From the NCBI GenBank assembly GCA_026874595.1, contig CM049311.1:34637176-34701175 (forward strand): DNA of 64,000 bases. The letters are read 5' to 3'. The first letter of the stretch is position 1, and every line of letters starts with the position of its first letter. Below the pieces are notes generated by a model, which was not told the origin of the DNA, made no database searches, and saw nothing but the letters and a program-made list of their open reading frames with translations. The position numbers were made by a program, and so were the translations under genes. Below, in pieces: positions 4,873 to 64,000 of the stretch. The stretch is from Sipunculus nudus. Its lineage: Eukaryota > Annelida > Sipuncula > Golfingiida > Sipunculidae.

Positions 4873-7742
4873 TATTTATTTAACCACGATTACAAAAATA
4901 GCCGTTAGGCTAATGCAAATGTTTTCCTGGGAAACGTATACAAACAAAGGTTCAATACAAATACATGGTGATGACCAGTGAATATAGTAACACTGACATA
5001 GTTTGAACAAACATATACATTAAACACACACACATACTGCACGTACAATAGTGCCTATTACATTGTTACATCAGATCCATGAAAGTGTCAGACAGTTTAA
5101 ATGAAATTACCTTAAAATCAAAATCGTTTTGTGTCCCCTATGTATCTGTATACGTGACTGAAGAGTTTGAAATTATCTGTAGAAGTAAGGGAGCAGCTGC
5201 CACAAAGTAAAATTCTAACTATTTCTAACTTAGTTTTCTTAGAGTAATTTTCAGTTATATGTTGAAATGTAAAACAGCAAAATTCCTGCAAACTAGCAAA
5301 AAGTGGGCGTCTCTGTTCAATATAAAGTGGGCAGTCTAAGAAATAATGAACAACAGTTTCGTCGGCGAGATTACATGCACAAGTTGGCTTTTCAGTTAAC
5401 CTTAAACAGAATACTGTTAAGGGTGCTGCAGTCAGTGCGTAACCGCGTGTGTAGGATATTATCACGTCGTATACCACCAAAGAAATAATTTGGCGGCCTT
5501 TTTGGATAAAACATATCGCACAATGCATTTTTAAATACATTGGTAGAAGTAATTGTTCTCACCTTTTCTGGTAAGGAATTCCAAATTTTAACTGCCGTAG
5601 GAATAAATGAGTGTTGTCCGGCATGGAGTCTGAATACTGGTACTCTGTACTCGCTGGCATTTCTAAGGTTATACGAGCCTTGTTTGCATTTATAACCGGA
5701 TAATGTTTCTATCAGATAGGGAGGACCCAGATTGTTTATAATTTTATAGAAAGTCGTAACAATTTTTACTTTCCTGCGGACAGACCATGTAGGCCAACCA
5801 AGCTGGTTTAACAGTTGTGTGCTGCTGCACCATCTTGTAGCTCCAGTTCACAGTAGCATGCCTTTGCGCTGAACACTTTCTCGATTGCTCGCCTGTACTG
5901 CAGAACAATTGTTAAATAGTATATCCCCATATCCGAGGACAGAAATCACCATTGATGTATACAGTCTATCTAGGACTTTTTTTTAGATAAAATGAACTTG
6001 AATGTTTGAAGCATTTCTATTCGTCTTGATGCTTCAGTACAAAGATTCCGAATATGGTCACCCCAGCTCAAGTCTTGAGAAAGCAATATTCCTAGATGGG
6101 ATAACTGTTCTACCTCAGATAAAACAGTTTTATTTAATATTAGCGCGGGGTGGGATTGTCCCTGATATTTCCTTGAAAAGGTTATGACTTTTGACTTAGT
6201 ACTATTGAATGTAATGTGCCATTGTGAAGACCATTCCTCTAATTTTAATAGGTCAGTATTTAGAGATTGGGCCGAGGCTGCAGGTGATTTAATCTTGGTG
6301 TACAAGCAAGTATCGTCAGCGTACATACGTATATGGTGTTTGTGATACCATTAGATGTATCATTAACATAAACTAAGTATAACAGCAGCCCTAAAATAGA
6401 GCCTTGTGGAACTCCTGCTTGTATGTGAACAGTGTTTGATGTGTGGCCCTGGAGTAGAACTCTTTGTGATCTATCGTGTAGATAGGACCCGAACCATTCT
6501 AGAATTTATCCTGAAATGCCCATTTGCTGCAATTTAAAGAGGAGGTCCCTGTGCCACACCTTGTCAAAGGCCTTGGATACATCGAGGCAGATTAATCTTG
6601 TATCCATACTTTCATCAAATCCCCTATATATAATATTCACAAGTTCAGTCAGCTGGTACAATGGACTATCGTTTTTCTTGTATGCAGAATTTATTGGTAT
6701 AAGTACTTTGTACCGAGTGAAATATTCATAACATTTATTATAGACTAACCTCTCGAATATTTGGATACATTATTCAACAGCGAAATGGGTTTATACTTTG
6801 GATTCTGGAACGGTCTCCTTTTTCAAAACGGGAATACCATTAGCTGTTTTCGATATAGAAGGAAATTTATCGGTTAACAATGACCTGTTAAATAATTATC
6901 AAAGCGGAATGGCAAGTATGCGAGACATCTTTTTTTTAAATGAGATTACATATTCCACCAGGACCTATGGCTTTAGCCACTTTAAGATTGTTCAACACCT
7001 GTTCTACGTCGGTAGGATTTAGTTGAAGTGACCATTAAAAAGATCATGTAGTATATTATTTAGTGGTGAGAGCGGCGTGGAATCGACATCTTCGGGAAGG
7101 ATGGCCTGAATGCTAAAGTAATTATTGAAAGCTTCGGCCTTTTCAATAGGGTCATATATGATATCTTCATCCACTTCCAGTAGTGGTTTTGGGGAATGCG
7201 TTTTTGTGCCCAGCAAGCCATGACTAATTTTCCACCACAGCGTATAGTCATGATACCCTACGTCTAGCTGATTTCTTATTTTATTCCAATAATTTTTCTT
7301 TTGCTTTCTGATCTCGGATACAACCATATTTCTTGCTTTTTTAAAAGACGCGTAATGTTCGGGCTGGTTATTATTTTTTATTTTTTTCCATGCCCTGTTT
7401 CTTTGTCTAATCATGCGTCTTATGTTTGCATTCATCCACGGCGTGTCCGTTGGTCGTATGGTTACAGTTTTTAATGGAACAGATTGTTAAATAGCATACG
7501 TTATAATATCACAGACTGATTCTGCAATGTCGTCTACGTAGTCAAAATCATCGTATAAAGTATCCCATGGAGCGTTTTGAAGACATTCTTCAAGCATTGT
7601 AAAATTTGTTTCGTTATATTTAAAAATTTTATGTTCATATGATTTCGGTTTATATACCTTAAGAAAAAACGACCAGGCCGTGACAGCATGGTCGCAATTT
7701 GAAAGCGGTGACGTTAAGTGAACATTAGTAAGACGTCCATGT
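4873..7742 (-). mobile_element. Decayed Jockey-like non-LTR retrotransposon (LINE), 5' truncated
   Basis: Read on the minus strand, conceptual fragments follow LINE ORF2 order. At 7742-7440 there is the end of the AP endonuclease and the linker, at 7435-7019 the linker with NANIRRMIRQRNRAWKK, and near 7000-6940 the first RT motif (KAIGPGG). GVPQGSILG lies near 6415-6385, the catalytic YADD at about 6323-6312, and a CNLADETVVHYFLDCPLY zinc-knuckle-like tail near 5385. The 3' end is an A/T-rich tail around 4873. Several stops (for example at 7019-7021) and frame changes separate the blocks, and most of the endonuclease is absent, so this copy cannot be active. Clade assignment (Jockey group) rests on motif layout only. 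Confidence 0.9.
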
Positions 7743-21432: not shown

Positions 21433-26789
<5,357 letters not shown>

Positions 26790-53936: not shown

Positions 53937-56900
53937 CTGTGTTAAATGTTGAAAAAAAATAGAAAAGAGTAGTTAGTCTACATGGCAACAAAATGGGCAT
54001 ACATTCAAGATTATTTATCTACAGAATTATCAGTTATATCAGTACTATGATTATGATTGCTCAAAAATGTGATTACAATGATTACCAGTGAGTGAACAGC
54101 TAGGAACACTTGATTAACCAGCATTCAGAGGCATTGTATGGAGGGCCTTTAAGCTTAGCATGCCATAAACAAATCACCACAGTACATATACAGTATTATC
54201 AAACCAGCAGTGCTGCACAGGGCTGGCCAATAGGCAATGGTTTCTTAGGGGTGACTGATACACTGTAGCCAATCAAGGTTAGGATGGTGATGGTGGTCAG
54301 GGGATTCCAAATTTAATACCCACATTTATACACTTTTTTATAGTCTTTGTGGAAATTTCTTCCATGCGTCAGTTTATAGACACTCTTACTTGTTTCGGCT
54401 GTTATATCAATGTGAGCTAGTCTTTCTATAAGAAACTTTTCTCATGATGTTCATGTGGATTGGTCTTTATGAAAGAGAGAGTTATCCAAGAAATCCACTA
54501 GCCCAGTTTTTACACCTGTTAGATATTTACAAGGGAGATTTGTCCCAGATATCCATTTGAGAAAGTTTTCACACAGGCTGAGATTTCTCTGTTATGAAAT
54601 TTTTATGATTGGGGGTTAATCTCAGACATCCATGAGTACAAATTTGTACAAAATCCAAAATATCATCTTGGGATATTTCCGTGAGGGAGAGTTATGCCAA
54701 AAATCTATATAGGCACATTTTTACACAAAAAATTATCCTAAAAATAAAAGCAAGTAATCTTAATGAGGAAGGGTTCTCCATATACCAATGTCATGTGGTA
54801 AGGTCTATACAAAGTTCTATTGCCAAATAAACTTGTGTTCCAGGCCGAGGGTGTCTCTGTTATGATGTTAGACAAAATACAAGGGAAGGTTTGCAGTGCT
54901 TTCGTGATCAGTACCCCTTCAGAAACCTTGCTCATTCATGAAAACCTCTTATAACATTAATATGCAAATAAATGAAACCAGTGGGAGGGCCATAATTAAT
55001 CTCCATCTGAAACAAACTAGTTAGTGACACTGTTAGTATATACATGAACATCCTAAAACCATAACACATGTCCACCGATAAAACACAAAAAACATATCTT
55101 AACCAGACCAGCACCAAGCTATAGTGTACAAATCTATTACTTATAGTGGAAAAAAATTAAAGAGGCCAAATATATAGATATAAATATATAAGCAGTAAGT
55201 GTTAATTAGAGGTGTGCAAGACTTTTCTAAATAATACATACAGGTGGACACAGTAAAGAAGAGATAATAAATAGAATTTTTTTAAACAATTTTATTATCA
55301 AATCTGAACCATTATTTACAATTTGAAATAAAACTGACCAACTGACAGCAGTTCCACATGGTCAAGAAGTTACCTGAGGCAATAGATGCCGATTTACTTA
55401 ACCATACAAATCCTGCTATAATAACATAATCTGAGGTTCTAAGACTTGTGTATCTAAACACATTTGTATATGTATAACATGCAAAATATACAAACCAACT
55501 CACAGCTACAAACAATAAAATTCATATAATCTAATAATAAACAATGTATAAGAATCATAGGGCAAAACGTGTCATGTTTACAATGTCTCAACATACACAC
55601 TGGAATGTAAAACAAAAGTATAAATTCAGCAAAAAATAAAATGGAATCTGAGGTAAATATGGCCACAGGTGTGATGTCTTCACCACTGTGTGTGTGTGTG
55701 TGTGTCTGAAACACTGGCTGCTTGGCCATCCAGTCCCTATCTACGTAATCATCACAGCCAATCAGATGGAAGGATCAAGCTTCATAGTTCATGTTAAGAA
55801 ATCACCTATTCCATTCCTAAATTGGTTTAAACGATCACCTCTTGTACTATGTAACGATTATGTGATCTTAGAAAATCTGTACTCGAACCATTCTGATCTA
55901 ACACCCAGGATGCTCAGTTTGCTGGTATTATATCACATGATCTGCTACAATTTACCACGTAAAAAGGTCACATGATCAAATAATTATCAGTGACCTGGTC
56001 AACTCATCTGTTTTACCAGATTAACACGAGTGTTTAATGATCTGGGTCTGATTTCTTTGTATGAAAAGCCTACTTGGATAACAGAAACTGGCCTGACCTA
56101 GTTGTCTACTTTAACATATATTTTTATAAAAAAAAGAAATCTTGTTGAGTACAGGTCATGTGATAAAAAAAACTGCATAAGCAGAGGCTGCCAATACTGA
56201 TAAGTCCAACCTGAACAAGCAATATGATCAAACTACATCAGATCACATGATTTGAATATACAAATTGAAGCTACCACATGTGAAGTATGGACCTATCTCA
56301 TTTTCCTAACATCCCTTCAATACAGCAGGCATCCAAGTGTTCTAATCCATTACTGAACATAACTCTACATAGAGCTGATCCTTAAAACTTCTGATCACAA
56401 TTAAAGTCCCTAAAAAGTTACTGGGTATTCTCACCCTTCTGAACAACTACAGTTCACAACTCAACTGATATCAATCTGCTGTGCTGTTTGTGCATTTTAA
56501 ACATGTTGATCCCTATGTTGCTGACTAGAAATTCTTGAGCAACTTGACATACAATGTGTCGTTATTTGAACAAAGCAGGTGATGAAATCCAATTCAAAAT
56601 TGCATTTTATAAAAGTCAGCTGGAAAACAAAACAACTAGAAAAACCAATGGATAGGGTGCCTATGTGACACAAAATGCCAGGCGTTTCAATAATTTGTGG
56701 ACATTTGGGTATCACTATAACTGATCACATACAAATGAATAACTGGTGTTTATGTATTAGCTTTTGTATGACAGCAACATAATAAGTGTATTAAACTGTA
56801 TTTAGTTACTGTGTTCAATTGGTCCACATTTGGGTACATAAACTCCTGACCCACCTGTCTTGACCTTTACTAAACTGGCCATGGTCTTTTCACCCTTATA

Positions 56901-57021
56901 TTAAAATAACCTATATGGGTTGGTCCTTGGGTGCCCTATCCATTGGTTCACAGCTAATGAGTCAGAAAGAGGTGAGAGCATTAAAACAAGTATGAAGGTG
57001 TGATAGAGAAGGATAACTAAC
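53937..57021 (-). other. Quaking intron between exons d and e (inferred)
   Basis: AT-rich. It contains two minus-strand ACTAAC sites 12 nt apart (55020-55025 and 55032-55037) and a (GT)n at about 55687-55705. No further exon was identified. Confidence 0.5.
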
Positions 57022-57050
57022 CTTGGATAACATTAGAATTCCAGCAGAGA

Positions 57051-57124
57051 CTAGGCCAGAGATACCCTGGAGTACGGGTGCTCTCGCATGCCTGCCACTG
57101 TTCTCCGAACCTTAGGTACAGCAC
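57051..57124 (-). CDS. QKI: Quaking exon d: QKI-5-like nuclear C-terminal tail
   Basis: Read on the minus strand after the acceptor GGGCTGTTTTAG, the exon gives GAVPKVRRTVAGMREHPYSR then VSLA and TAG (57051-57053). Vertebrate QKI-5 ends with GAVATKVRR...MRVHPYQR, the tail that holds the QKI-5 nuclear localisation signal, so this exon should specify a nuclear isoform. It joins in phase from exon c (codon G split 1/2). A downstream donor GTTAGT at 57021-57016 suggests that the exon continues to 57022 and splices to the 3' UTR exon, leaving a stop-to-junction distance of 29 nt. ACTAAC lies 31-36 nt upstream of the exon. Confidence 0.9.
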
Positions 57125-58376
57125 CTAAAACAGCCCAACACTGGTTAAACATCTGTTAGTCAAAACTCAATATCCTAGTTTGTTACGTGGCAGGGGCTGG
57201 GGAACTGCATGGGGAGTCAGCTGGAATGCTTCCTCTTAAACCTGTGCATAAATTAAGCATATTAACAGGATCTGCACATGAAATTATGCTAATGATTAGA
57301 ATTAGTGCATGAATTAAGGGAATTCCTTCAAACTTGCAAGATCATAATCTGTAATAAAGTTTAAATTTAATAAACATATGAAAAACTAGATGTATAAAGC
57401 TTTAGCAAAATTAGATTGTAAAGTAAATAGAAAATAAAATGCTTTATAGTTATGCTCAGAGCTTTGTGCAAACTTCCCTCTGTTTCTATAAAGTTATTCT
57501 CTGAACTGGGTTTAACATGAATCAACTAGTAATGATTTACTACTGGTACTTTTTTTCAAATTAAAAAGAGTAAAACCCAAGAAGCTGCTTATACCAGTTA
57601 AATAATTTGGTGGGAGTATCAATTTTCGAAAAAATCAAATTTTGTCAACTAAAATGCAGCTTTATAACATTACAGAGAAAGTCCCTCCCCAAAACACAAC
57701 TATCATTCCATCTGTGGCCCATGCAGTTCCAGACAGACAGGCACAACAACCTTGTAGTATGCTGCACAATGAGAGAATATTAGTGATTTAGTGCAGACCT
57801 TAAGCTGTTTAGAACACACTTCTCTAGTTTCTCTAGTGGTGAATGAATCATTATCATTGGTCAAAAAAAGTCAAGCTGAAAAAGTGGCTACAGAATCCAC
57901 ACTTAAGACGGGGCGAATATTTTATCATCAATTATTATATAAGGCCATACATTGTCTATAAATCCCCCACCATGCTATATCTACAGTTATCCCTGAAATA
58001 TGGTAAAAACAGTAAATACAAAAACAGGCATGCATTCAAAAAGCAAAACACAAAATAAACAAGACACTGTACAAAAGAATTCTGCAGTGGTCAAGCCAGG
58101 TGCTACATAAATTTAAAACAGTTACTACAGGGAGATTTAATTGGATTATTCGGTCTGCAAAGCCCAAAAGCCAAGATGGGACACGCAACGTACCTGCTTT
58201 TGATGTAGCTGCACACAGATGTCACACCATATATGCTACCCCTGATAATTTTACCCATAATAGGGTCAGATAATCAGGTCAGTTATTTCCTATCATGTGC
58301 TGACAACATGATAATTTAGTAAACGTGCACAGGATGAACACATCCCCCTGCCACAAATGTGTTATAATTCTAGTGC

Positions 58377-58391
58377 TCACTAGGGGGCGCT
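58377..58391 (+). promoter_or_regulatory. CTCF-like core motif
   Basis: TCACTAGGGGGCGCTAG, inside the intron of quaking between exons c and d, fits the CTCF core at 13 of 14 positions. Prediction only. Confidence 0.3.
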
Positions 58392-59394
58392 AGTGTTCTA
58401 TCAGTGAAAAAGCTCATGCTCCTGTACAAATAAAAGGAACTGCACCTGGCTTTACCCCTTAATTCTGTGGACAGCAAACCATACCACTATAATTGCCCAG
58501 GTGCTTATATCACTTTAATATACATTACACACCCTAAGGGTAACAAAAATACCCATATAAAGACCCATGACCCAAAGCTACCATCTAAGAAAGACCATCC
58601 CAACAAAAATTTAACAAGAAAATTATACAATGCACTTGTGTCAAAGGTTTATCAGCTGATGCACTAGTGTGTAAAAAATGTTCTGAAACTTTTTGTACTG
58701 AAAATACAAGTTACTTCCCCTTATACTCTTGTCATAATCTAGACTCGAGCAAAACACAAAGAAATATGTATATAAAAGAAGTCACAATAATAAGAAAGGT
58801 TTGTTCAGGACCAATGACAAACCTTGTCAGATATTGCACATAATTATTGCATCTGATCGTGTGAACGCCTCAGACAAGTTAACAAATTAACAGCCTAATG
58901 ATAACATTTAATATCCGCAGGGCAGTTCACACAAAATGACCAACCACACCCCCTGAACTGTAATTACTGCACCCAGATTATCAGTCAGTAAAAATTTCAG
59001 TCCTACCCAGGGAGAATTTATATATTGGATTAATTATTTTTACATTGACTAATTTATACATTTAAATACTTATTTAAAAAAAGACTAGCATTTGAGCTTT
59101 ACAATACAAGTTCACAAAATCTCTGAGATGATCTACTGATCTTAACAGGAGGGTTTCTTTTATTCCTCCTTGTTCTGAGATACGGTTTCTTCTAATCCCC
59201 CATTAAACCCTCTCCATGCAGCACCATGCCTCAACTAACAACCCCCCCTCCCCAAAGTTTTTTTCTGTCATTCCCTAAAGACATCAATAACAGTATTGCA
59301 CCATGAAATAAAAATACACAACGTGCATCTTTAAAAAGTCTCTTGAAAGTAAAACTGAACAAAGAATTGACATTTTGTACTAATCCAGTCCATT

Positions 59395-59717
59395 TCACCG
59401 TATATATGACATACCAGCTGCACTCTGTTCGATGCTACCAGGGTATTCTGATAGGAGGGTAGGTGATGCTAGCCCTGCCATTGCTGCTGCCGCTGCTGCT
59501 CCATAGGGATACTCATAAGGGTTGTATAACAGTCCACTCTCTGCTGGTGAAACCAGTGGGGGTGGCGCATTACCCAGCAAATTCTGAGCTGCTGTCGTGT
59601 TTACTACTGGAAGCCTTGGTGCCATGATGATGGGGGCGCCACCTACACCCAGAGCCGGAGATGTGGGAGACCGCAGTGCTGGTGAGACTGCGAGGCCATG
59701 CGGCAAAAGCTTTTGTG
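59395..59717 (-). CDS. QKI: Quaking exon c: shared C-terminal region with read-through short tail
   Basis: Begins after the acceptor TTTTTTGTTGCAG (minus strand) in phase 1/2. It encodes a Pro/Ala/Gly-rich region including GAPIIMAPRLPVVNTTAA, NAPPPLVSPAESGLLYNPYE (QKI: PGPEAGLIYTPYEYPY) and an alanine run, ending SIEQSAAG. A good donor, GTATGT, at 59414-59409 lets exon 59415-59717 join exon d. If it is not used, translation reads on for MSYIR and stops at 59395-59397. That read-through tail starts G-M like the vertebrate QKI-6 tail (GMAFPTKG), which suggests a parallel short, possibly cytoplasmic, isoform. ACTAAT lies 31-36 nt upstream of the exon. Confidence 0.93.
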
Positions 59718-62273
59718 CTGCAACAAAAAACCCAAACCCAATATAATATTAGTATTATATTACCCAAGATAAAATATGTTCCATCAGAATCATTATGATA
59801 GCCGTTTTCATAATGCTTTCATCATGCTTAAGCTAGTAACGCAAGAGCTTGTGCAGAATATCATCCCATTAAATATGACTAATTAAAAATCAAAAGCTAA
59901 AAATAATAACTCCAATCCCAATTATCTTCACATAATCTGTGATGCCCCTGATACAAACTCTTGCATGATCTATGAAACAGCAGCATTCTCTTATCCAAAT
60001 GTCTTGTTACTGACAGTATAAAATAATTACAGATCCTGTGAATATTAGTCAGTTTTCTTACTTAAACTGCAGTTAGCAATTAACCATCAGCATAGTCATC
60101 ACACTATCATTTTTAAGCATGGGATTTAAAACCATAAACTCATAAAATATACACTAAAGACTTATTCAGATGATTAGGCCTATAATAACCCAATCCCAAA
60201 ATCAAAGGACTGTTAAACCTATAAAATCCTAACCTATCATTGAAAACATTTTTTTTTATCATTTTATCACAATGAATCTGTATTCATATAGATTAAATTA
60301 ATACTAAAACTTTACACAGCATACTGCACCAAACACTAGAAAGTAACTTTATCCATTAATAAAAAGGTTCATCACTTAGCACCAAAATAAACCACAGTGC
60401 AGCATACAAACAAGCTATGACTCAATAACAACGCAGACCCAATGCAGACTGGTGCTAAAGACCATTTCTGCTTGCATGCATAACAATAACAGCACCTGGT
60501 GGCAAATTTAGGACCTAATTTCTCTAGGTTACATTAAATTTCCTCCCTGTTTTATGATTTATGTATTTCCAAACTGTGAAATCAATTATTTTTATATGGT
60601 TTGTTATGTTCCATGCAGTTGGTAGTTAGGTCTCCTACTGATTACTCCTTGAAAGGTACAGCCAAAAATTAGTTCTTATATCAGCCACTAGGTGATGCTA
60701 GTATTGTTGAAATAGCCAATACAAGTTAATTTGTGAGGTATTTAGGTCCGAACCTGAGAATTGTCGGTATTGGCCTGAGCTGTCTATATATGTGGGTTGT
60801 TCAACATATTGGCCCAGGCTGGTGTCCAATATGACGCCTGTGGCTAAATGTGAAAATAACTCATTTCAGTGCCAGAGAAACAGCTCATTAGGAGGGTCAG
60901 AGTTCACAAAAGTACAGTTTTAAATAGATGGTCCGTTTTTTTTAACATGTCTAGTTGCTGGGCTTCATGAACTACCAGTAATTCTACAAACTCCTCATAC
61001 AGTGATCACCTTACATATGTTCTTTAAACATTTTCACTTAACCATTGTCTTCAATAGCAGGGTTTGATGTAAATCACCACCAGTGGGTTGGCATAGGTCA
61101 AAGAATATTGGCTGATGGGAGTTGGGTTCAAAGGGTCTAATTTCATGTCCAAGTATTAAACCCTTAAATTACTGCACTCACAGGTCAAGAACAATCTTGT
61201 CCCTGTGCCAACTCCCTGGCAGCAATATACATCAAAACCTGCTTGATAGCACTGGTTTGGTAGAAGTTACAGAGCAAATGTAATGAGACCACCATTTAAG
61301 AAGTGTAGAATTAAGCAGGTAACCTGGAACATTTTGTTGAATCAGAAAAATATCCTTTCATTATATAAAATGGATCTAAAGTTTCCTTAAATAAGTTTCA
61401 TATTTTATGAGTGATATCTGTTGGGAATATCCAATTAGAAACTTAACACAATTTAAAATAAAATCTAAATGTATACTTCACTTCTGTATCTTATGAGTTG
61501 AGGAAAGAATTAAGACCATCCACAAAAACTGTACTTTGTGAACACAAAAGCAGTTGCACAAAATCATCAAGCAGCCATTAAAAAACAGAGATAACACTTC
61601 AAACCATGTGACCTTTGGGTAAAGCATATCCAATACAGTAAATTCAATATTAACAAGTATTGGCGAATGTTAAACTGGCCACCAAAATCTGATTGTTGTC
61701 TCATCATTACACTCAAAACAAAAGCAGTGCTGGTACAAACGTTAACAATCTTTAAATACTTTATACATTGACAAGCAATACTACAACATAACACCCATGC
61801 ACACTTCATGCCATTATTAGATATTAAGGTTAGTAAAGATCAAAATCAAAATGATTGTTCCTGAAAGAGAAAAAATAAGAAATGCTGAAACCAGCACACT
61901 AATCAAAATCTGAAAACACAGCACAGCAACAGGTCAAGGTCATGTCCAATAGCAGCTTGTGAGAAACAGAAACAGAAAATAATCCAAGCTGTGAAGAGAG
62001 AAAGAGAGCAAGAGTTTGATTGACAGAAATCAGGGTCGTGAGAAGCGACAAACTGTTGTACGTATCACTGCACGCTCACCAGCCTGCCAGCTGTGGGTCT
62101 CAGAAACCTCGTTCATGCACGGCCAAGGGCTGCAAACCAATCCAAAAAGGGAGAAGTCCACAGACCAAATCAAAACAGGAAAGCAACTAAACAGGCTGGC
62201 TAACCGTGTGGGGGGCGGGGTAATGAAGGGATGGGCTTCCTATGTACTCCAGACCATGCCCATGCCAACTTAC
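59718..62273 (-). other. Quaking intron between exons b and c
   Basis: No additional exon recognised. AT-rich, with no repeat that I could name. Confidence 0.7.
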
Positions 62274-62397
62274 GAGCGGCCACCGTGGCTGTAACGGAAG
62301 TGGCGGATGACACAGGGTTTTTGGTATCGCGGTACGTTCCATTGATAATGGCTAACTCCATCAACTGCCTCTTCTTCAAGTCGTCCTCTCCTTCAGG
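62274..62397 (-). CDS. QKI: Quaking exon b: QUA2 exon, downstream copy
   Basis: Minus-strand exon of 124 nt between acceptor TTCTGTGTTTCAG and donor GTAAGT, encoding PEGEDDLKKRQLMELAIING then TYRDTKNPVSSATSVTATVAA. It aligns with human [21 protein letters not shown] and TYRD..., the end of the KH/QUA2 RNA-binding module, plus a Ser/Thr/Ala linker that resembles QKI's SLAATAQAAP. It begins in phase 0 and ends in phase 1 (C + CA of exon c makes Pro). ACTAAC at 62426-62431 lies 29-34 nt upstream, flanked by two more CTAAC motifs. This copy has the more QKI-like linker and is probably the ancestral one. Confidence 0.94.
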
Positions 62398-63038
62398 CTG
62401 AAACACAGAACAAGTTAGCTTGCTGGTTAGTGCAGTTAGGCTACAGTTGCTTGCTTGCCCAGTACTGGACAGTTGCCACCGCTGTTGCTGGGATGGTACC
62501 CCTGTTGTCCATGCCTCCAGTTTCAAACACATCAGAATCTGCTAAGAGCAACTCATATCCAATATTTCAAAATTTTGAATTCCAATCTTGGGAAAAGGAT
62601 ATAAAAGATAACAGAGGATGAACAAAATCAATTTGTGATTTTTCTAATCAAACTTATAATTTAAAAAAAAAATTAATTTAAATGATAATCTATAAATCAG
62701 TATATTGTATATTGTTTGCCCACATGCAACAAACATATCTGGCCTTTTTAAAACAATTTTCTTCATTTTCTGGAATCATGAGTTTGCAGATTAAATGCTT
62801 GCTACTTTGAGGTACAAAATTGGACATGAATTGCACTTTGCAGATTCCAATTTGCCACTAGGAATGCACTGTGTGGCTCCATAGCAAGTCCTGGGTTACT
62901 GGGTTAAATAGTTAGCTGGATGATGGCCAGATGGCACCACCTCATTTTGTTGGTGGATTAGCCCCAGCTAGTTCCAAGATTCACTGCTAAATGGCGACAG
63001 TGATGGCAGCAAGCACTGAGAACACATTATACACTTAC
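62398..63038 (-). other. Intron between the two quaking QUA2 exon copies
   Basis: 641 bp. I see no third copy of the exon. If the copies are mutually exclusive, this intron would be removed only as part of a longer intron or together with exon b. Confidence 0.7.
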
Positions 63039-63138
63039 AACTGTGGGCAGGTAGAACAGTTTTTGCATCACGGTATGTTCCATTCAGAATGGCAAGTTCC
63101 ATTAGCTGTTTTTTCTTCAGTTCATCTTCTCCCTCAGG
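63039..63138 (-). CDS. QKI: Quaking exon a: QUA2 exon, upstream copy
   Basis: Minus-strand exon of 100 nt between acceptor TGTATGTTTCAG and donor GTAAGT. It encodes [20 protein letters not shown] then [13 protein letters not shown]. Over the 26 aligned QUA2 residues it matches exon b at 22. The linker after TYRD is unrelated and eight residues shorter. It begins in phase 0 and ends in phase 1 (T + CA of exon c makes Ser), exactly like exon b. No ACTAAY lies in the 50 nt upstream. The KH-domain exons before it fall outside the window. Confidence 0.93.
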
Positions 63139-64000
63139 CTGAAACATACACACAAGACAACTACATACAGGGAGTGTTCAAAAGGTAAAAAGTCCCCTCG
63201 CACAAACGGCCACTTTAAAGTGCTTGTCAGATATTTCAAAGACAATTCCCGCAGTGATACCTCAACTGGGCATGTTTAAGCATGTGTGTGTTTCTAATAA
63301 CCCAGAAGGTTAACACTAGAAGGCCTGATATTTTTGTGCATTTACTGGGAATTATATGATTGTCAGGAAGCATGTGCTTTCATGATATAGCCAAATATGT
63401 AATTATAAGTAAATTTCATCCAGGCTTCATAAACTGCAAGACTTAAACTAAGGCAAGACCAGAACTATAGGAAAAAAGATAGTGTTTAAACTCTGATATA
63501 CACAGTTAATATGTTGGAGTCATGTAAAGCAAACACTGTTAACATCATACATGTGAACCTAACAGGCCACTCAAGTTTGAATATTTTGAGCTCTCTAAGT
63601 CCACAGCTGTTTTGCTGGGGTCATCAGCCCTAAGAGTGGATTGCTATGGTTTCATCAATAAGACCAGAGGAACTGCCATACACACAGTCCCAAACCTCTA
63701 ATAACAACAAGTAATACCCTCCCACAATGCCAGGCCCTGTTACCAGCCTGTCTACAGACCCTGAGGTGAAAGTGGTATAATTATCCTGAATTCTATAAAT
63801 ATCTCCAGAATTTGGTAAACAGCAACACTGGACTCTGCTCCACAGGTGGGCATTACCAGAGTCTATAATGACCAGAGCATTCAGCAATAGAACTTGACAA
63901 AGTTCCTAAGGCAAAGTTTGTTCTTCAAAAGAATGCCCTGCAGTCAAAGGTATTCAAGTTATTACTGGCAGGGACTTAGAGTCTCTCCCTATGTCCGAGC
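63139..64000 (-). other. Quaking intron upstream of exon a
   Basis: The exon that should precede exon a, ending the KH domain with a phase-0 donor, was not found here, so the intron continues past the window edge. Nothing else recognised. Confidence 0.6.

What the first reader, a model, noticed from the sequence alone, without database searches (positions are those of the whole stretch)
62274..63138. Tandem, phase-locked copies of the quaking QUA2 exon: a frame-enforced either/or splice choice
Two exons 641 bp apart encode the same QUA2 segment (22 of 26 residues equal) with full splice signals. Both start in phase 0 and end in phase 1. If both are included, the next codons read TCC TGA, an immediate stop; if both are skipped, exon c is read out of frame and soon stops. 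Only one at a time gives a full protein. The copies differ inside the RNA-contacting QUA2 helix (K/R, L/I, E/D) and completely in the following linker, so the switch could alter RNA affinity or partners. Vertebrate QKI and fly HOW are known for alternative C-termini; I know of no report of duplicated QUA2 exons.
Basis: partly seen in the sequence, partly recalled or inferred. Interest (0 to 1): 0.88.

Follow-up and report, generated by a model that had tools for sequence, protein, structure and literature searches.

The report
Duplicated either/or exons in quaking
An animal's quaking gene, which makes an RNA-binding splicing regulator, carries two copies of the exon that completes its RNA-binding domain, arranged so that only one at a time gives a full protein; one copy has what looks like the protein's own binding site at its splicing branch point, so the protein may control which version of itself is made.

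Summary
Confirmed at the stated coordinates, minus strand. Extended beyond the window, the gene has QUA1, linker, two KH exons, QUA2-a, QUA2-b, exon c and a tail exon. Through a or b it reads 331 or 339 aa, best solved match quaking. Both copies together stop at TCC TGA; neither gives a stop at the 25th codon of c. The copies differ at 19 of 78 bases but 4 of 26 residues; synonymous change is high or saturated and both stay close to QKI and GLD-1, so both look constrained and the duplication old. No third copy was found. No transcript could be checked. The four residue differences are mild and at positions where QKI and GLD-1 also vary or differ, so changed RNA specificity is unlikely. New here: three CUAAC motifs at exon b's branch site (-42, -33, -21; ACUAAC at -34), a Quaking-type site; exon a has none. 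Mammalian QKI represses such exons by displacing SF1, so I propose a self-reading switch (inferred). The frame-locked arrangement is known from U2AF1; six paper searches listed no report of it in quaking.

The parts
63039..63138 (-). QUA2 exon a (100 nt, phase 0 to 1): [33 protein letters not shown]
   Evidence: phmmer to QKI 4jvh 4.5e-9
62274..62397 (-). QUA2 exon b (124 nt, phase 0 to 1): PEGEDDLKKRQLMELAIINGTYRDTKNPVSSATSVTATVAA
   Evidence: phmmer to GLD-1 2mjh 3.8e-8 and QKI 4jvh 2.1e-7
62414..62439 (-). CUAAC cluster at exon b's branch site: CUAAC starting at -42, -33 and -21 from the acceptor, ACUAAC at -34
   Evidence: function inferred
59415..59717 (-). exon c (303 nt), shared, in frame after a or b; ACUAAU at -36
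57051..57124 (-). tail exon ending the reading frame (GAVPKVRRTVAGMREHPYSRVSLA); ACUAAC at -36
   Evidence: The upstream exons lie outside the window: e1 98208-98082, e2 83607-83477, KH1 75427-75311, KH2 69996-69853 in extended window coordinates

Best explanation
A pair of tandem-duplicated, mutually exclusive exons in an animal quaking (QKI/HOW-type STAR) gene that appears single-copy. Each copy completes the RNA-binding domain with nearly the same QUA2 helix and then supplies a different linker: short in a, longer and rich in Ser, Thr, Val and Ala in b. Shown from sequence: homologous exons, matching phases, premature stops when both or neither is used, constraint between the copies. Inferred: (1) cells use one at a time, and messages with both or neither are removed by nonsense-mediated decay; (2) the choice is set largely by Quaking itself, since exon b's branch site is a CUAAC cluster that a Quaking dimer should cover, blocking SF1 and sparing exon a, so low Quaking favours b and high Quaking favours a; (3) the isoforms keep RNA specificity and differ through the linker. 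My odds: one at a time 0.82; Quaking as the main switch 0.4; linker as the main functional difference 0.6. The confidence given is for the core, (1) with the shown parts.
For: Gene model and frames. STAR_dimer 2.7e-25 and KH 2.2e-18 in the joined a protein; best solved match quaking 4jvh, 1.6e-91 (a) and 1.8e-90 (b). Constraint: 4 residue changes for 19 base changes; dN 0.07-0.09; dS 2.0, 5.6, 11.7 or not computable (saturated) by four methods. Copy a differs from QKI at 4 and from GLD-1 at 5 of 26; b at 6 and 6. The stops lie 119 and 228 nt before the next junction. Switch: three CUAAC at exon b and none at a; from the genome-wide density the chance of a triplet just upstream of a or b is about 2e-4. 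Precedents: RAI14 exon 11, ACUAAC at 34 and 43 nt upstream, QKI-repressed and SF1-activated (PMC13004596 section 6); worm ASD-2 binds CUAAC repeats to repress unc-60 intron 1A removal (PMC3469465 passages); mouse QKI-5 regulates splicing of its own gene (PMC5548867 passages).
Against: No RNA evidence. ACUAAY also lies at -36 of exon c and of the tail, so it may simply be a favoured branch sequence in this gene; ACUAAC is also a good SF1 site. UAAY half sites are not enriched around the exons overall: 3 in the 300 nt before a, 10 in the a-b intron, 0 in the 300 nt after b, against 3.7, 8.0 and 3.7 expected at the gene's own density. CUAAC triplets occur 5,672 times in the genome (reversed control 2,571). 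The first CUAAC is predicted mostly paired (unpaired 0.23; the others 0.61 and 0.99). Only 26 codons underlie the dS estimate. Four AGs, two in the intron and two inside exon b, would let a join b in frame without a stop; I did not score them beyond reading their flanks.
Confidence: 0.82

Rival explanations
1. Either/or exons as above, but not chosen by Quaking: the CUAAC cluster is just a strong branch site recognised by SF1, and another tissue factor (for example a UG-binding protein at exon a) makes the choice.
For: ACUAAY also at -36 of c and tail, which do not compete with a; exon a's polypyrimidine tract holds UGUGUGU; UAAY not enriched overall.
Against: Three CUAAC in 26 nt exceed what a branch site needs; 0 of 19 crudely mapped myosin acceptors have ACUAAY or CUAAC in -52..-16, one more (L031) having ACUAAU at the edge.
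Confidence: 0.42
2. The pair mainly tunes the amount of protein: messages with both or neither copy are a decay outlet, and the two proteins are equivalent.
For: Both faulty messages carry stops 119 and 228 nt before the next junction; helix differences are mild. Autoregulation of RNA-binding proteins through stop-containing splicing is common (abstract opening of PMC6547761 in the listing).
Against: The linkers differ completely in sequence and length, and a decay outlet does not need two well-kept coding copies.
Confidence: 0.12
3. One copy is a relic or is hardly used.
For: No RNA evidence for either copy; old duplicates can persist.
Against: Both have an open frame, both splice signals and low dN against high dS; both stay near QKI and GLD-1.
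Confidence: 0.06

Closest known systems
U2AF1 exons Ab and 3 (human U2AF35a/b)
   Same: Tandem duplicated exons in the gene of a splicing factor, coding part of a functional domain with few residue changes; including or excluding both gives stop codons and decay (PMC5224494 passages).
   Different: Other gene and domain; those exons are both 67 nt and are regulated through U2AF; here the copies are 100 and 124 nt with unlike linkers, and the candidate regulator is Quaking.
Vertebrate QKI, fly HOW, worm ASD-2 and GLD-1
   Same: Same STAR architecture; QKI has alternative 3' ends and regulates its own splicing (PMC5548867 passages); this gene too has two possible ends after exon c.
   Different: The isoforms I saw described differ at the C-terminus (mouse qkI) or the first exon (asd-2, PMC3469465 passage), not in a duplicated QUA2 exon. 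HOW isoforms are recalled only.
QKI-repressed ACUAAC branch site of RAI14 exon 11
   Same: Tandem ACUAAC 34 and 43 nt upstream of the acceptor (PMC13004596 section 6); here ACUAAC at 34 and CUAAC at 42.
   Different: A cassette exon in another gene; here the site is in quaking's own transcript and would choose between two copies.
OGDH exons 4a/4b
   Same: Mutually exclusive duplicated exons; branch motifs noted as resembling STAR-protein targets (PMC7969005 passages and listing abstract).
   Different: There exclusion is enforced by distant branch points near the upstream 5' splice site; here the motifs are at ordinary branch distance from exon b.

Membership tests
Quaking-type STAR protein | QUA1 homodimerisation region | tested here: met
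   PF16544, 88.1 bits, cut-off 26.3
Quaking-type STAR protein | Single extended KH domain | tested here: met
   PF22675, 66.3 bits, cut-off 30
Quaking-type STAR protein | QUA2 helix after KH | tested here: met
   both copies match QKI 4jvh and GLD-1 4jvy; Pfam gave no match to the exons alone
Quaking-type STAR protein | Closer to QKI than to KHDRBS or SF1 proteins | tested here: met
   a form: 4jvh 1.6e-91, KHDRBS3 6.1e-32, SF1 5.5e-23; only proteins with solved structures compared
Quaking-type STAR protein | Binds ACUAAY-N-UAAY RNA as a dimer | not testable with these tools
   needs a binding assay
Frame-locked mutually exclusive tandem exons (U2AF1 type) | Adjacent homologous exons with equal phases | tested here: met
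Frame-locked mutually exclusive tandem exons (U2AF1 type) | Both or neither gives a premature stop | tested here: met
   stops after 207 and 197 residues
Frame-locked mutually exclusive tandem exons (U2AF1 type) | One copy at a time in mature RNA | not testable with these tools
   no transcript data
[quoted passage not shown]
   exon b: ACUAAC at -34, UAAC at -41 and -20
QKI-repressed ACUAAC branch-site exon | Repressed by QKI, activated by SF1 | not testable with these tools
   needs knock-down or minigene

The most novel reading that the evidence does not exclude
Quaking reads its own transcript to choose its own RNA-binding domain: Quaking dimers occupy the CUAAC cluster at exon b's branch site, shut out SF1 and force use of exon a, so the a/b ratio reports and steadies nuclear Quaking activity. 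The pair may be ancient, with lineages that have a single QUA2 exon having kept one of the two types.
Probability: 0.33. Interest if true: 0.78.

Novelty: new member of a known kind. Interest (0 to 1): 0.6.

Why it matters
Quaking-family proteins steer muscle, glial and germline RNA programmes and themselves regulate either/or exons. Such a choice inside Quaking's own RNA-binding domain would add a layer of isoform control that my searches did not find reported, and the branch-site cluster makes a specific feedback circuit testable with one minigene. It would be a further case, beside U2AF1, of a splice-signal-binding protein whose own domain is set by frame-locked tandem exons.

Tried and rejected
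Pfam on the isolated exons found nothing, so I used phmmer against solved structures. Third QUA2 copy: none in 114 kb. Genome-wide, the exon b peptide gave three hits at E up to 10: b, a, and one on C2 (E 0.0285) beside a KH hit, probably SF1 (inference). Homology of a and b outside the 78 nt: none above shuffles in 400 nt on either side. Rfam on the window: 0 matches. Tandem repeats at 55000-64000: none. Dating by relatives was not possible: the genome 'has no relatives here', and the other collections on hand are prokaryotic, viral or capped. Naming the animal: the COX1 search (11 matches) was meant to find mitochondrial DNA, but 10 of 11 lay on contigs C60-C123 that look bacterial. A scan with one of these found relatives at 59% identity at best among the 80 kept, so this was dropped.

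Branch-site background: 30 myosin loci (of 75 matches). A first pass (0 of 15 with ACUAAY, 1 of 15 with CUAAC) read minus-strand loci in the wrong orientation and is superseded. There 8 of 30 were left out for long open frames, 22 examined, 1 had no site and 2 scored low, leaving 19: 0 with ACUAAY and 0 with CUAAC in -52..-16; 1 of 19 has three or more UAAY. L031 has ACUAAU at -20, cut by the edge of that zone; if it is counted, 3 of 7 against 1 of 19 gives p 0.047 instead of 0.013. Acceptors were placed by a crude score, not by transcripts. The 14 AMP-binding loci were on contigs C61-C113 and not used; E1-E2 ATPase loci were not cut out. Structure prediction was not run, because a spliced protein is not letter for letter in the window.

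Full report
What is there. The gene runs on the minus strand and begins outside the window, so I fetched 40 kb beyond the high end and 10 kb beyond the low end. Exons in extended window coordinates: e1 98208-98082 (ATG, QUA1), e2 83607-83477, KH1 75427-75311, KH2 69996-69853, QUA2-a 63138-63039, QUA2-b 62397-62274, c 59717-59415, tail 57124-57051. The six internal exons have AG before and GT after. Joined through a or b the frame is open for 331 or 339 residues. The products have STAR_dimer and KH domains and match solved quaking best. One QUA1 match was found in the genome (27 of 27 candidates scored), so quaking looks single-copy. The exon model rests on homology and splice signals, not on transcripts.

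The either/or frame. Copy a then c, or copy b then c, is in frame. Copy a then b gives TCC TGA; skipping both gives a stop as the 25th codon of c. The stops lie 119 and 228 nt before the next junction, so both faulty messages should be open to nonsense-mediated decay (rule recalled). The second would escape if c were used as a last exon, which its read-through end GMSYIR makes possible.

Both copies look constrained. Over 26 codons 19 of 78 bases differ: 13 at third, 5 at first and 1 at second positions; 4 residues differ. dN is 0.07-0.09; dS is 2.0 (YN00), 5.6 (ML), 11.7 (LWL85) or not computable (NG86). The value is imprecise, but the duplication is old. Against QKI, a differs at 4 of 26 and b at 6; against GLD-1, 5 and 6. 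Neither copy looks decayed. At the four a/b differences (E/D, K/R, L/I, A/T) QKI has S, M, L, A and GLD-1 has E, K, I, M, so these positions vary among relatives that bind similar RNA (similar specificity is recalled). Hence I doubt a change in RNA recognition. The rest of the two exons does not align above chance: after DAK and DTK the residues are TVLPAHS in a and NPVSSATSVTATVAA in b.

The branch-site cluster. Upstream of exon b the RNA strand reads CUAACUGCACUAACCAGCAAGCUAACUUGUUCUGUGUUUCAG, with CUAAC at -42, -33 and -21 and ACUAAC at -34. It is the only CUAAC triplet within 35 nt on either strand of the 114 kb, and none arose in 200 dinucleotide shuffles of the 41.6-kb gene. Genome-wide a looser pattern occurs 5,672 times (reversed control 2,571; many of the listed places are tandem repeats); that density gives about 2e-4 for one starting in the 45 nt before exon a or b. 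Exon a has no UAAY in the 100 nt upstream. ACUAAY also sits at -36 of exons c and tail, and at none of e2, KH1, KH2 and a: 3 of 7 acceptors, where 14 sites spread over 41.6 kb predict p 6e-5. Against 19 crudely mapped myosin acceptors (0 of 19) p is 0.013, or 0.047 with one edge case counted. UAAY half sites are not enriched in the flanks overall, and the first of the three CUAAC is predicted mostly paired. I examined this motif because it is the known Quaking site, but only after seeing the sequence, so these p values are after the fact.

Reading. In mammals QKI and SF1 compete for ACUAA branch sites; SF1 activates, QKI represses; RAI14 exon 11 has ACUAAC at 34 and 43 nt upstream (PMC13004596: abstract, section 6 and Discussion read). 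In worms ASD-2 binds CUAAC repeats in unc-60 intron 1A and represses its removal (PMC3469465 passages). Mouse QKI-5 regulates splicing at the 3' end of its own gene (PMC5548867 passages). The simplest circuit is that Quaking represses b in its own transcript and so leaves a. This is inference. The same motif at c and tail, which do not compete with a, is the main point against it, though those could belong to autoregulation of the ends.

What is known. Frame-locked tandem exons in a splicing-factor gene are known from U2AF1, where including or excluding both exons gives stop codons and decay (PMC5224494 passages), so the arrangement is a known kind. Full-text searches for quaking, held out wings or asd-2 with QUA2, mutually exclusive exons, exon duplication, molluscs or tandem duplication listed no paper whose title, abstract opening or passages seen report it in a quaking gene. 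Most listed papers were not opened; subscription papers and database annotations were not searched. The likeness of exon b's tail to the vertebrate linker and of the tail exon to QKI-5's nuclear tail is recalled, not tested.

Noticed in passing
window 59395-59414 (minus): Exon c can read through its donor into GMSYIR and a stop, a second possible C-terminus without the HPYSR tail.
   Followed up: partly
window 57051-57160 (minus): The tail exon (GAVPKVRRTVAGMREHPYSRVSLA) has ACUAAC at -36 and a half site at -23, so the choice of C-terminus may also be Quaking-regulated.
   Followed up: partly
window 63139-63163 (minus): Exon a's polypyrimidine tract contains UGUGUGU, a possible site for UG-binding splicing factors.
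   Followed up: no
window 25550-25759 (+): A stretch coding part of a papain-family cysteine protease (PF00112, 8.2e-10).
   Followed up: no
window 5970-6347 (minus): A piece of a reverse transcriptase, below Pfam's cut-off (23.6 of 29.6 bits), likely a retrotransposon remnant.
   Followed up: no
G000 contigs C60-C75, C89, C113-C123: The assembly holds bacterial-looking contigs, several with near-equal scores for the same genes (COX1, AMP-binding, E1-E2 ATPase with long open frames). COX1 of C60 is at best 59% identical to a relative kept (an Oligoflexia MAG), so an associated, little-known bacterium is likely.
   Followed up: partly
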